IMG/VR virus record: IMGVR_UViG_3300023229_000066
Span: 1-28,187 of that record
Length of the DNA: 28,187 nt
Source: a virus
Direction: 5' to 3' (one strand)
The position numbers were made by a program, and so were the translations under genes. The notes beneath the pieces are model-generated. The model saw only the letters and a list, made by a program, of their open reading frames with translations. It did no database searches and was not told where the DNA came from. Below, in pieces: positions 1,173-6,246 of this stretch (position 1 is its first letter; each line of letters begins with the position of its first letter).

Positions 1173-1222
1173 GGGGTAATAAAGGGTTAATGTTGACCCG
1201 GATAATAAAAATAAAAGTTATG
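1160..1222 (+). repeat. 63-bp promoter-leader cassette, copy 1
   Basis: This runs from TTCG of the promoter through the ATG of the DUF932 gene. It matches 6289-6351 at 59 of 63 bases by eye, although the genes that follow are unrelated. It includes the -7 box, an inverted repeat and the AAAAGTTATG start context. Confidence 0.8.
1184..1199 (+). promoter_or_regulatory. Inverted repeat in the DUF932 leader
   Basis: GGGTTAA and TTGACCC flank TG. In RNA all seven pairs form if one G-U is allowed; in DNA it is a near-perfect dyad. It lies about 20 bases after the -7 box, just past the expected transcription start, so it could be an operator or a 5' leader hairpin. Confidence 0.5.
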
Positions 1223-2035
1223 AGTGATATGGTTAATTTAAGTAATGAGGATTTTTTAACGGATGAGCAAATTAGAGAAAAAGCACCCGCAGTTTTTACC
1301 CTAAACCCAAGTGGTGAAGTTTCAAAACATTATACACACATCTCAACCTCAAAAGTAATTAATGACATGAGAACTTTAGGATGGGATGTTACCGATGTTA
1401 AGGAAGTTAAAGCCCGAAAAGCAACCACAAGAGGTGTTCAAAAACACTTAGTTGTATTTCGTAACCCAGAAGTCCTTATTGAGGGGGAGGATGGTGATAC
1501 AGTTTTTCCACAAATTCTTCTAACGAATTCTCACGATGGTAAAAACGCGTTTACCTTCACAGCAGGGTTGTTTCGCATGATTTGTGCTAATGGATTAGTT
1601 ATTGCAACTCAACAATTCGAAGACGTTAAAATACGCCATATGGGTTATACGTTTGAGGATCTTCAATTAAATATCAGAGCGATGGTAGAGCGTTTACCCC
1701 TAACAGTTGATTCTATGAATAAAATGAAAGCAATTGAGATGGGAGAAGAGGAAGCTTTAGTTTTTGCTAAAAAATGTTTAACCTCAAGATTTGGTGATGA
1801 CAAAATGAAAATGCTTAAAGTTGATTTAAAAAAGATGATTACCCCAATCCGTAGAGAAGATTTTGGAACGGATGTTTGGTCTCGATTTAATGTAATTCAA
1901 GAAAAGTTATTAGATGGTGAATTTACCTACACAGTAGGTGGTAGATCTCGTAAAGCTAGAAAGGTTAAAAACTTCAAGCAAGATCAAAAAATAAATAAAG
2001 AAATATTTTCATTAGCTTTAGATTATGTTGTATAG
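1220..2035 (+). CDS. DUF932-family phage/plasmid protein
   Basis: The 271-residue product carries the DUF932 hallmark at about residues 103-128 (NSHDGKNAFTFTAGLF, then RMICANGLVI). This family is common on phages and plasmids; its biochemical role is not established as far as I know. The open frame extends back to 1109, but those 37 codons read through the promoter and leader. The ATG at 1220 is chosen because it has the AAAAGTTATG context and lies at the same place in the 63-bp cassette as the next cassette gene's ATG. The 3' end overlaps the next gene by 11 bases, suggesting co-translation. No membrane segment or signal peptide is visible. Confidence 0.8.
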   Translation: MSDMVNLSNEDFLTDEQIREKAPAVFTLNPSGEVSKHYTHISTSKVINDMRTLGWDVTDVKEVKARKATTRGVQKHLVVFRNPEVLIEGEDGDTVFPQILLTNSHDGKNAFTFTAGLFRMICANGLVIATQQFEDVKIRHMGYTFEDLQLNIRAMVERLPLTVDSMNKMKAIEMGEEEALVFAKKCLTSRFGDDKMKMLKVDLKKMITPIRREDFGTDVWSRFNVIQEKLLDGEFTYTVGGRSRKARKVKNFKQDQKINKEIFSLALDYVV

Positions 2036-2545: not shown

Positions 2546-2689
2546 ATGAAAATGTATTTAGGTGAAGCAAAAGATGCTATATCTGAACTTGGTGGGGGTA
2601 TCTTTAAGACTTATACTACAGGACTTGGGGAAGCCAAATATTGTTCGTATATTTACGCGTATAATTGGAGCCAATACCGGTTTCAATAA
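2546..2689 (+). CDS. Possible small protein overlapping a promoter
   Basis: A 47-codon frame begins MKMYLGEAKDAISELGGGIF and ends just before the helicase gene. The N-terminal half looks protein-like (an amphipathic helix). An AGAGGA sequence lies 6 bases before the ATG, unusual here because other genes lack Shine-Dalgarno sites. The 3' third (from about 2624) coincides with the promoter of the next gene, so part of the frame is constrained for another reason. It could be a real small gene, a 5' remnant, or chance. Confidence 0.33.
   Translation: MKMYLGEAKDAISELGGGIFKTYTTGLGEAKYCSYIYAYNWSQYRFQ
2624..2656 (+). promoter_or_regulatory. Promoter of the UvrB-like helicase gene
   Basis: CTTG (2624-2627), 20 bases, TATATTTAC (2648-2656). 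It shares TTGTTCGTATATTTACG with the promoter at 6269-6301 and has the same -33/-7 spacing. Confidence 0.6.
2664..2675 (+). promoter_or_regulatory. Inverted repeat in the helicase leader
   Basis: ATTGG and CCAAT flank AG, a perfect 5-bp dyad 16 bases after the start of the -7 box. It is in the same relative place as the GGGTTAA/TTGACCC dyad of the cassette promoters, but with a different sequence. Confidence 0.4.
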
Positions 2690-2701: not shown

Positions 2702-4156
2702 ATGCAAAATGGATTTAATTTAAAATCCGATTTCACTCCTACTAAAGATCAATATAATTCAATTGATGGTTTATTAGATGGAATTGGTAAGTACAAACAA
2801 CAAACTTTAAAAGGAATAACAGGTTCAGGAAAAACATTTGTATTAGGGAATGTTATCGATAGGGAAAATAAACCCGCGATTGTTTTAGCACCTAATAAGG
2901 TATTAGCATATCAGCTATATAATGAATTAGTAGCAATGTTCCCCGATAACTTTGTTGGATATTATGTATCTAACTATGATATTTACATACCACCATATTT
3001 TCATAACATTCTTAATAAGAAAGTAGAAGGTACAGTAGTTGTTAATCAAGAAAATAAGGATTTACGTTACGCAGTTAAAGATTTCTTAGATTATTCCGAT
3101 AAAGCTATTTTAATATGCTCCAGTACTATTTTATTTCCAACTTTTGAAAAACAATTGCCCGAGTTAATTACTGAACATAAAAGTTTCATCATCCGGAGAT
3201 TGAATGAAGAGATGGTTAAACAAGTTAGAGATTTTAATAGGGAAGGTAGATTGGAAGAAGCTGAACGATTAGAAAATCATATAGATCATACCATTAATAT
3301 GTTGTTACCTTCAGATAGTGAATATTACAATACTGATGTGATTGCACTTTTAGGGGAAAAATTAGGAGATTTTTATTTAACAGATTATTTCAAAAAATCC
3401 AAACCAAATTTATTTATTGATGAATCCCATTTAACACTATTACAATTAAAGGCGTTACCTAGTGCTAATAAAGCTAGATTAACAAAGTTAGTAGATAAAG
3501 GATTTTATATAAGTAATGTTATCAAAAACAATGTATTAAATTTTGATGATTTAAAAGATAGAGTAAACACAATAACTTATATATCCGCTACTCCATCAAA
3601 ATTTGAATTAGATAACAGTGAATATGTTTCGGAGTTAATGACACGTCCTAATAATATAGTAGATCCAAAACTTACTATTAAAACAGATGAATATTTTGGT
3701 GGTAAAAAAATGATTGATGACGTTAGAGATATAATTCAAAAAGGGGAAACCGTTTTTATAAACTGTATATCCCGAAAATCAGTTAGTGATATTCATACTT
3801 TACTCTCACACAACAATATTGAAAGTGAAGTTATACATTTCAAAATAAAACAAGATAAACGCAAGGAAATTTTAAGAGATTTACGTAGTGGTAAAATTAA
3901 TGTTATTATTGGTATTAATATGTTACGTGAAGGGCTTGATGTAAAACAATGTTCCTTAGTAATTGTTGAACAAGCTAGTAGGAATAATTTTTTACGTACT
4001 AAATCATGTTTAATCCAAGTATCAGGAAGAGCTGCTAGAAATGTAAATGGTGAAGTTTTTATGTGTTGTAATCATATATCATCATCATTAGCGGGAGCTA
4101 TTGAAGAAATAGATTATAGGAGGGAAAAACAATTAAGTTTAATAGGTAGTATTTAA
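2702..4156 (+). CDS. UvrB-like superfamily 2 helicase lacking the UvrA-binding and C-terminal domains
   Basis: This 484-residue protein follows UvrB along its helicase core. Walker A is GITGSGKT (38-45), followed by VLAPNKVLAYQLY (61-73). YYVSNYDIYIPP (87-98) matches the UvrB beta-hairpin base, although some of its tyrosines are replaced. The DEAD-box equivalent is IDESHLT (239-245), motif III is SATP (295-298), then GINMLREGLD (404-413) and LIQVSGRAARN (437-447). UvrB is usually about 670 residues. Here the stretch between SSTILF (140-145) and RRLNEEM (165-171) is too short to hold UvrB domain 2, the UvrA-binding domain. The protein also ends soon after motif VI, without the UvrC-binding UVR domain. 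It probably remodels DNA with ATP but is unlikely to work with host UvrA in the normal way. The SprT-like gene follows directly. Start context is AAGAGTTATG. Confidence 0.88.
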   Translation: MQNGFNLKSDFTPTKDQYNSIDGLLDGIGKYKQQTLKGITGSGKTFVLGNVIDRENKPAIVLAPNKVLAYQLYNELVAMFPDNFVGYYVSNYDIYIPPYFHNILNKKVEGTVVVNQENKDLRYAVKDFLDYSDKAILICSSTILFPTFEKQLPELITEHKSFIIRRLNEEMVKQVRDFNREGRLEEAERLENHIDHTINMLLPSDSEYYNTDVIALLGEKLGDFYLTDYFKKSKPNLFIDESHLTLLQLKALPSANKARLTKLVDKGFYISNVIKNNVLNFDDLKDRVNTITYISATPSKFELDNSEYVSELMTRPNNIVDPKLTIKTDEYFGGKKMIDDVRDIIQKGETVFINCISRKSVSDIHTLLSHNNIESEVIHFKIKQDKRKEILRDLRSGKINVIIGINMLREGLDVKQCSLVIVEQASRNNFLRTKSCLIQVSGRAARNVNGEVFMCCNHISSSLAGAIEEIDYRREKQLSLIGSI

Positions 4157-4167
4157 AAATGAAAGTT

Positions 4168-4713
4168 ATGGAAAATATATTATTAGAAAAATTAAACACC
4201 AAAATATCAGATGGTTTAGGTGTTGAGAAACTTAAGATTAAATACGAGGTATCTACAAAAGCAAAATCAAAATTTGGGCATTGTAAATATATTGAACCAA
4301 ACCACTATTTAATTAATTTATCATCTTTTATATTGGGGACCGAATTGGAAAAAGATACCATAGCACATGAGCTTTGCCACGCTTATGACCATCACTATTT
4401 TAAATTAGGACCGGAAACGGCTGGATGTGATCCCAAACCACATGGTGATGCTTGGAAAATGTTGATGGATAAGATTTTTGGTTATAAAGATGTAAAATCA
4501 CAAGGAATCCATAAATCAAACCCTAAATATAATAAATTTATAGATAAAGGAGATGGTGGATATGATCTATATGTGAAAGGTTATAAAAAAGCAGTATTTT
4601 CTATTGATGGAGATAATTTTTCTATTAAAACACCATCAAATAAATATTTTGAAAATGAGATAGAGGAAGGGAGATATATGCAATTATTTGGTGAATTTTT
4701 AACTAGAGAATAA
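4168..4713 (+). CDS. SprT-like zinc metalloprotease
   Basis: A 181-residue protein with the zinc-protease motif HELCH (67-71) and a third likely ligand, His92, in PHGDAWKMLM. This is the SprT/SPRTN arrangement (HExxH plus HGxxW/F). The family includes proteases that cleave proteins cross-linked to DNA, but bacterial and phage members are poorly characterised. The C-terminal part after about 110 may hold a small beta domain; no clear four-cysteine zinc ribbon is seen. An ATG at 4159 is also in frame, but the ATG at 4168 has the GAAAGTTATG context and is preferred. It follows the UvrB-like helicase with no promoter between them, so the two are probably one operon. Confidence 0.83.
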   Translation: MENILLEKLNTKISDGLGVEKLKIKYEVSTKAKSKFGHCKYIEPNHYLINLSSFILGTELEKDTIAHELCHAYDHHYFKLGPETAGCDPKPHGDAWKMLMDKIFGYKDVKSQGIHKSNPKYNKFIDKGDGGYDLYVKGYKKAVFSIDGDNFSIKTPSNKYFENEIEEGRYMQLFGEFLTRE

Positions 4714-5463: not shown

Positions 5464-5556
5464 ATGGAAGATAACATAAGAGAAAATTGGAAAAAATTCT
5501 TAAATGAAGAAATGACTAAAGCTCAAGAATTGGGTGTAACAGAATTTCCATATAAA
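5464..5556 (+). repeat. 93-bp direct repeat, copy 1
   Basis: This encodes the 31-residue head module. By eye it differs from 5887-5979 at one base, a silent change in a proline codon. Confidence 0.9.
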
Positions 5557-6246
5557 ATTAAGGATGAAAATGATAATCAAATCTATTACGAAACTTCAAA
5601 TGGGTATTGGCAGAAAAGAGAATTTGATAAAAATGATAATGAAATCTATTTTGAAGATTCAGATGGTTATTGGCAGAAAAGAGAATATGATGAAAATAGT
5701 AATGAAATCTATTATGAAATTTCAAATGGTACTTGGTTTAAAAGAGAATTTGATAAAAATGGTAATGAAATCTATTTTGAAGATTCAGAGGGTTATTGGT
5801 ATAAAAAAGAATTTGATAAAAATGGTAATCAAATCTATTTTGAAAAGTCAAATGGTACAATCCAAGACGACAGACCAAGTAATGGGATGGAAGATAACAT
5901 AAGAGAAAATTGGAAAAAATTCTTAAATGAAGAAATGACTAAAGCTCAAGAATTGGGTGTAACAGAATTTCCTTATAAAGAATATGATGAAAAAAATAAT
6001 CAAATCTATTTTGAAGCTTCAAATGGGTTTTGGAGTAAAAGAGAATTTGATAAAAATGGTAATCGAATCTATTATGAAACTTCACATGGTTTTTGGGAGA
6101 AAATAGAATTTGATAAAAATGATAATCAAATCTATTATGAAACTTCAGAGGGTTTTTGGGAGAAAAGTGAATTTGATGAAAATAATAATGAAATCTATTA
6201 TGAAACTTCAGATGGTAGAATTAAAGACAACAGACCAAAACAATAA
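5464..6246 (+). CDS. Internally duplicated repeat protein (21-residue YD/MORN-like repeats)
   Basis: The 260-residue protein has two halves of the same design. Each opens with a 31-residue head (residues 1-31 and 142-172, identical), followed by tandem 21-residue repeats of the form FDKNGNEIYYETSxGxWxKRE. Five repeats lie in the first half (IY at 40, 61, 82, 103, 124) and four in the second (IY at 181, 202, 223, 244). The spacing is exactly 21 each time. Each half ends in a DxRP segment. The repeats recall Rhs YD and MORN-like beta-repeats, which often form elongated binding surfaces; that is an analogy. There is no signal peptide or membrane segment, so it is probably cytoplasmic. A 112-codon frame at 5564-5902 is only a shadow created by the repeats. 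Confidence 0.8.
   Translation: MEDNIRENWKKFLNEEMTKAQELGVTEFPYKIKDENDNQIYYETSNGYWQKREFDKNDNEIYFEDSDGYWQKREYDENSNEIYYEISNGTWFKREFDKNGNEIYFEDSEGYWYKKEFDKNGNQIYFEKSNGTIQDDRPSNGMEDNIRENWKKFLNEEMTKAQELGVTEFPYKEYDEKNNQIYFEASNGFWSKREFDKNGNRIYYETSHGFWEKIEFDKNDNQIYYETSEGFWEKSEFDENNNEIYYETSDGRIKDNRPKQ
5563..5865 (+). repeat. 63-bp tandem repeats, five units
   Basis: The unit is 63 bp (21 codons), recognisable by the recurring core AATCTATTnnGAA. Five units follow the first head copy. Confidence 0.8.
5887..5979 (+). repeat. 93-bp direct repeat, copy 2
   Basis: Second copy of the head module, starting with an internal in-frame ATG. Near-identity at silent sites shows that the duplication or its correction is recent. 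Confidence 0.9.
5980..6219 (+). repeat. 63-bp tandem repeats, four units
   Basis: Four further 63-bp units after the second head copy. They match each other about as well as they match the first block. Confidence 0.75.

What the first reader, a model, noticed from the sequence alone, without database searches (positions are those of the whole stretch)
2702..4713. A UvrB-like helicase without a UvrA-binding domain paired with a SprT-like protease
The helicase keeps all UvrB helicase motifs and part of the beta-hairpin, but has no room for domain 2 (UvrA contact) and lacks the UvrC-binding tail. It is followed directly by a SprT-type HELCH protease, the family that includes DNA-protein crosslink proteases. 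A helicase-protease pair acting on protein-blocked DNA, or on host DNA-bound proteins, would be a new phage system. The sequence shows the pairing; the joint function is inference.
Basis: partly seen in the sequence, partly recalled or inferred. Interest (0 to 1): 0.72.

Follow-up and report, generated by a model that had tools for sequence, protein, structure and literature searches.

The report
Phage UvrB-like helicase beside SprT protease
A group of uncultured phages carries a slimmed-down relative of the bacterial DNA-repair helicase UvrB that has lost the parts needed for DNA repair but kept its motor, and in three of five lineages with an intact gene it is followed directly by a Spartan-type protease gene; the stripped helicase is a new variant, but the pairing is loose and a joint function is unproven.

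Summary
The gene at 2702-4156 encodes a 484-residue UvrB homologue with all SF2 helicase motifs. It lacks domain 2 (UvrA contact) and the C-terminal UvrC-binding part. All five distinct intact family members share this deletion; 96 other UvrBs read from viral and bacterial contigs are 92-110 residues longer there, with none in between. The AlphaFold2 model (pLDDT 88.7) matches UvrB crystal structures without domain 2.

A SprT-type HExxH protease follows (best start 4168), apparently in one transcription unit. The pair recurs in two further phage contigs, so it is not chance. But the two genes are separable: two helicase loci lack an adjacent SprT, most related SprTs lie next to a RecA-fold ATPase gene instead, and recombination has moved SprT as its own cassette.

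Best reading: a repair-independent phage DNA translocase, possibly UvsW-like, co-expressed with a DNA-linked protease. A dedicated helicase-protease machine is not excluded but not shown. New variant of a known kind.

The parts
2644..2657 (+). Promoter-like motif TTCGTATATTTACG, 44 bp before the helicase start; the only copy upstream of the helicase-SprT pair
   Evidence: 3 exact copies and 2 copies with 2 mismatches in the window (0.93 expected, 0 of 100 shuffles reach 5), at 1160, 2644, 5438, 6289, 27491; none between 2657 and 5438. Copies at similar distance before the helicase in L001 (5936, 2 mismatches) and before the helicase N-half in L003 (5948, exact). Resemblance to Bacteroidetes-type promoters is from general knowledge.
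2702..4156 (+). UvrB-like SF2 helicase without domain 2 and domain 4 (484 aa)
2813..2836 (+). Helicase motif I (Walker A), GITGSGKT, residues 38-45
   Evidence: Sequence; invariant in the family; G38, T40, G43, K44 invariant across 47 UvrB-type proteins
2969..3052 (+). Degenerate beta-hairpin, residues ~90-117; UvrB Y92, Y95, Q97, E99, A100, Y108, K111, D112 replaced; Y93 and Y96 kept
3137..3181 (+). Short linker (residues ~146-160) where UvrB has domain 2
3419..3430 (+). Helicase motif II, DESH, residues 240-243
   Evidence: invariant across 47 sequences
4016..4042 (+). Helicase motif VI, QVSGRAARN, residues 439-447 (both arginines kept)
4168..4713 (+). SprT-type metalloprotease, likely true start 4168 (ORF opens at 4159)
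   Evidence: Pfam SprT-like E 6e-12; start supported by the relative L003 and the AAAGTTATG context
4366..4380 (+). HELCH zinc/catalytic motif
   Evidence: H, E and second H invariant in 13 relatives
4441..4446 (+). HG, probable third zinc ligand (H92 of the protein starting at 4168)
   Evidence: Invariant in 13 relatives; role inferred from the SprT/Spartan family

Best explanation
A repair-independent phage DNA translocase descended from UvrB, co-transcribed with a SprT-type protease. Shown: the helicase keeps the complete SF2 motor of UvrB but has lost the domain that lets UvrA load it, most residues of the lesion-sensing hairpin, and the domain that recruits UvrC. It is kept by purifying selection in several phage lineages, and the records searched encode no UvrA or UvrC. 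Inferred: it therefore does not work in nucleotide excision repair but moves on or unwinds DNA by itself during phage replication or recombination, plausibly filling the place that the helicase UvsW fills in T4-like phages. The neighbouring SprT protease, which in other phages of this group lies next to a RecA-fold ATPase gene, most likely cuts proteins bound to DNA (stalled or crosslinked proteins, or host DNA-binding proteins) in the same phase of infection. The link between the two is co-expression in one DNA-processing operon, not an obligate complex.
For: UvrB homology and motifs. Clean loss of domain 2: 5 distinct family members against 96 UvrBs, no intermediates. Hairpin residues replaced. 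Model matches UvrB minus domain 2. dN/dS 0.13-0.34. No UvrA or UvrC in 7 records including the 142-kb one, with controls ringing. No UvsW-type helicase other than this gene in the 142-kb record. Same-strand adjacency with 2-11 bp spacing in window, L001 and L032; one promoter-like motif before the pair and none inside it. SprT directly downstream of a RecA-fold ATPase gene in L025, L026, L033-L036.
Against: All records are fragments, so absence of UvsW, UvrA or UvrC is not proof. The helicase is broken in the 142-kb phage, which also shows no other UvsW-type helicase, so the helicase is dispensable there or works in pieces. No biochemical data. The SprT model is only moderately confident (pLDDT 73).
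Confidence: 0.5

Rival explanations
1. Dedicated helicase-protease machine: the translocase recognises protein-blocked DNA and hands the obstacle to SprT, which degrades it.
For: Adjacency on the same strand in three contigs with divergent sequences; apparent co-transcription; SprT homologue SPRTN degrades DNA-protein crosslinks (PMC5128726).
Against: Helicase without adjacent SprT in L002 and L037; SprT without the helicase in most records; near-identical SprT alleles behind helicases only ~70% identical at DNA level.
Confidence: 0.15
2. Host-attack cassette: SprT cleaves host proteins and its neighbourhood is incidental; helicase and SprT are accessory genes shuffled in a variable region.
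For: Iyer et al. (PMC7824862) favour host targets for phage SprT-like peptidases because of patchy distribution. SprT moves as its own cassette and lies among variable small genes.
Against: SprT repeatedly sits beside genes for DNA-acting ATPases of two unrelated kinds, not beside arbitrary genes.
Confidence: 0.25
3. The helicase still serves nucleotide excision repair, or blocks it, by a different contact to host UvrA or UvrC.
For: Clear UvrB ancestry.
Against: The UvrA- and UvrC-contacting regions are absent and invariant hairpin residues are replaced.
Confidence: 0.07
4. The deletion is a sequencing or assembly artefact or a decayed gene.
For: Metagenomic contigs; the gene is broken in one relative.
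Against: Same deletion in five distinct contigs at 65-88% protein identity to each other or the window, with dN/dS 0.13-0.34.
Confidence: 0.01

Closest known systems
UvrB (bacterial excinuclease ABC subunit B)
   Same: 33-37% identity over the SF2 core, all helicase motifs, same predicted fold (best PDB match 1c4o, TM 0.88)
   Different: No domain 2, no domain 4, degenerate hairpin; forms a separate long branch outside all 42 UvrBs in a tree
T4 UvsW / A18-type helicase of T4-like phages
   Same: SF2 helicase of a T4-type phage; could occupy the same role (inference)
   Different: Sequence is clearly UvrB, only weakly similar to phrog_16
SprT-like / SPRTN (Spartan) metalloproteases, including phage SprT-like peptidases noted in PMC7824862 and PMC1524935
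   Same: SprT-like domain, HExxH and a downstream HG; weak fold match to human SPRTN
   Different: No cysteine zinc ribbon; C-terminal region of four strands with no conserved cysteine; no tblastn match in 50,697 phage records
Full-length phage or prophage UvrB (phrog_27849; hits in INPHARED and IMG/VR)
   Same: UvrB genes in phage-labelled records
   Different: Those keep domain 2 and are 30-39% identical to this protein

Membership tests
UvrB (nucleotide excision repair) | SF2 helicase motifs I, II, III, V, VI of UvrB | tested here: met
UvrB (nucleotide excision repair) | Domain 2, the main UvrA contact | tested here: not met
UvrB (nucleotide excision repair) | Aromatic/charged beta-hairpin (Y92, Y93, Y95, Y96, E99, Y101, Y108, K111, D112) | tested here: not met
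   Only Y93 and Y96 kept, Y101 is F; the rest replaced
UvrB (nucleotide excision repair) | C-terminal UvrC-binding domain 4 | tested here: not met
   Protein ends at the position of UvrB ~580
UvrB (nucleotide excision repair) | NCBIfam equivalog cut-off (743-750 bits) | tested here: not met
   351 and 342 bits
UvrB (nucleotide excision repair) | UvrA-dependent loading at lesions | not testable with these tools
   Needs biochemistry
SprT-like / Spartan protease | SprT-like domain above the Pfam gathering score | tested here: met
   45.8 bits against 25.6
SprT-like / Spartan protease | HExxH and third histidine | tested here: met
   Invariant H67, E68, H71, H92 in 13 sequences
SprT-like / Spartan protease | C-terminal cysteine zinc ribbon of bacterial SprT | tested here: not met
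   No conserved cysteine in the C-terminal part
SprT-like / Spartan protease | DNA-dependent proteolysis | not testable with these tools
   Needs biochemistry
T4 UvsW helicase | Sequence membership in the UvsW family (phrog_16) | tested here: not met
   Best family is UvrB-type (276.6 bits) against 60.9 bits for phrog_16, in motor motifs only

The most novel reading that the evidence does not exclude
A phage helicase-protease module in which a UvrB motor, freed from UvrA and UvrC, finds protein-blocked DNA and activates a zinc-ribbon-less Spartan-like protease next door, with the RecA-fold ATPase playing the same part in sister phages: SprT as a protease that plugs into different DNA motors.
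Probability: 0.15. Interest if true: 0.8.

Novelty: new variant of a known kind. Interest (0 to 1): 0.42.

Why it matters
If the helicase works without UvrA it shows that the UvrB motor can be detached from excision repair, and gives a natural minimal UvrB for studying what domain 2, the hairpin and domain 4 add. If the SprT protease is coupled to DNA motors, phages would offer a simple model of protease-assisted clearance of protein-blocked DNA, a problem central to Spartan biology. As it stands the pairing is loose, so the value lies mainly in the helicase variant and in a testable hypothesis for phage SprT proteases.

Tried and rejected
Direct database search for SprT in deposited phages: no match. 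Whole-window megablast to phages: no match. Group I intron or other known RNA at the split helicase in L003: no Rfam match except tRNAs in L001. Intein or trans-splicing as the cause of the split: set aside because the junctions fit a thioredoxin gene exactly. Defence-system membership: only weak generic helicase matches. A published phage helicase of this kind: not found in the paper library by the terms tried; the one 'UvrB-like' phage-related paper concerns a tiny mis-annotated ORF. The first alignment for structure prediction failed because L143 has stops in the matched stretch; it was left out.

Full report
Where the window lies. The window is a 28,187-base virus record with no near match among 50,697 phage records. 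Downstream genes match T4-type baseplate wedge families, so this is a tailed phage of T4-like build. The record is a fragment. A Bacteroidota host is an inference from AT-rich start contexts without obvious Shine-Dalgarno sequences and a promoter-like motif; it was not tested.

The helicase. The ORF at 2702-4156 is a UvrB homologue: NCBIfam UvrB E 1e-104 but 351 bits against a cut-off of 743, and PDB UvrBs down to E 5e-83 in two stretches separated by a jump in UvrB numbering from about 146 to 256. I aligned it with four family members and with full-length UvrBs. Across all fetched ORFs the net length difference is bimodal: 0-3 residues for the phage family (14 rows representing five distinct contigs) and 92-110 for 96 other UvrBs, with nothing in between. 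The missing piece is domain 2, the main UvrA contact (domain assignments from established UvrB structures). The protein also stops before the UvrC-binding domain 4.

Is it still a lesion detector? In 42 UvrBs the hairpin residues Q97, E99, A100 and K111 are invariant and Y92, Y95, Y108 and D112 nearly so or conservatively replaced. In all five phage proteins they are replaced: N, I/V, I/K, P/T, Y, K, G and T/K at Y92, Y95, Q97, E99, A100, Y108, K111 and D112. Only Y93 and Y96 remain, with F at Y101. The motor motifs are intact: GITGSGKT, DESH, SATP, GINMLREG, QxxGRAxRN. AlphaFold2 gives pLDDT 88.7 and pTM 0.86. The best solved structures are UvrBs, led by 1c4o with TM 0.88. Because the alignment contained UvrBs, the fold agreement is not independent of the homology. 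Selection is purifying: dN/dS 0.13-0.34 between family members. In a tree the family is one clade with a long stem outside all UvrBs sampled; long-branch attraction cannot be excluded.

The protease. The ORF opens at 4159, but the ATG at 4168 fits the relative L003 and the common AAAGTTATG start context. Pfam SprT-like scores 45.8 bits against 25.6. HExxH and a later HG are invariant in 13 relatives. The C-terminal part is predicted as four strands and a helix with no conserved cysteine, so the zinc ribbon of bacterial SprT is absent. The model (pLDDT 73) matches human SPRTN weakly but first (6mdw E 0.0025).

Are they a pair? The genes are neighbours on the same strand in the window, in L001 (35-kb contig, helicase 88% identical, SprT 60%) and in L032 (helicase 67%). 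A motif TTCGTATATTTACG, over-represented in the window, lies 44 bp before the helicase. No copy lies between it and 5438, so both genes probably share a transcript. A similar copy precedes the helicase in L001 and the helicase N-half in L003.

Are they a unit? Mostly not. L002 and L037 carry the helicase without SprT beside it. Nine other records carry SprT with a RecA-fold ATPase gene of about 265 residues in the same locus and no helicase in the stretch read; the ATPase gene is directly upstream in L025, L026, L033, L034, L035 and L036, while the part of the listing covering L027 to L029 was cut. L030 has SprT with neither. L001 and L032 are ~70% identical in DNA along the helicase, then about 100% from the last ~80 bp of the helicase to the end of SprT, then unrelated, so SprT travels as its own cassette between phages.

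A broken relative. In a 142-kb contig (L003) and a 51-kb contig (L004) the helicase is split with its halves in swapped order; a third record (L005) holds the C-half junction. The C-half is fused in frame to a thioredoxin gene, and the N-half ends in YNNE, the expected thioredoxin tail. The exchange sits at the shared sequence ATTAAATTTT. An intact thioredoxin gene with a matching tail occurs in another record, G008. SprT is intact in between. The N-half is 99% identical to the window and the C-half 86%, so recombination between related phages was involved. Either the helicase is dispensable there or the pieces still work; this was not resolved.

Mechanism. I commit to a repair-independent DNA translocase, plausibly UvsW-like, in one operon with a DNA-linked protease. 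Supporting absence data: no UvrA or UvrC in seven records, and no UvsW-type helicase in the 142-kb record other than pieces of this gene. Absence in fragments is weak evidence.

Novelty. I found no published phage UvrB lacking domain 2 in the library by the terms tried. The library lacks most subscription journals. I class the helicase as a new variant of a known kind, and phage SprT as already noted in general, with this helicase-linked, ribbon-less subtype as a further variant.

Noticed in passing
L003:1929-2801 and L003:5971-6858 (142-kb contig), same in L004; C-half junction also in L005: UvrB-like helicase split in two with swapped order by recombination into a thioredoxin gene at the shared sequence ATTAAATTTT, giving a thioredoxin-helicase fusion ORF of 290 codons.
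   Followed up: partly
L003:601-1862, also in L005:4433-5694: Thymidylate synthase gene interrupted by a ~190-bp insert with stops; the insert encodes a peptide similar to an insert elsewhere in the same protein (score 76, best of 2000 shuffles 44).
   Followed up: partly
window 1160, 2644, 5438, 6289, 27491: Promoter-like motif TTCGTATATTTACG, over-represented (5 matches with up to 2 mismatches, 0.93 expected), mostly shortly before genes.
   Followed up: partly
window 5464-6246: 260-aa protein built of ~21-residue repeats (63-bp tandem units).
   Followed up: no
window 1211-2035, and loci L001, L025-L030, L033-L037: DUF932 protein conserved across nearly all these phage loci, often in the helicase or SprT neighbourhood.
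   Followed up: no
L025:4128-4994 and the same gene cluster in L026-L029 and L033-L036: RecA-fold ATPase of ~265 aa, weakly like KaiC, DnaB-C and Sak4 families, in SprT loci of sister phages (directly upstream where the listing was complete).
   Followed up: partly
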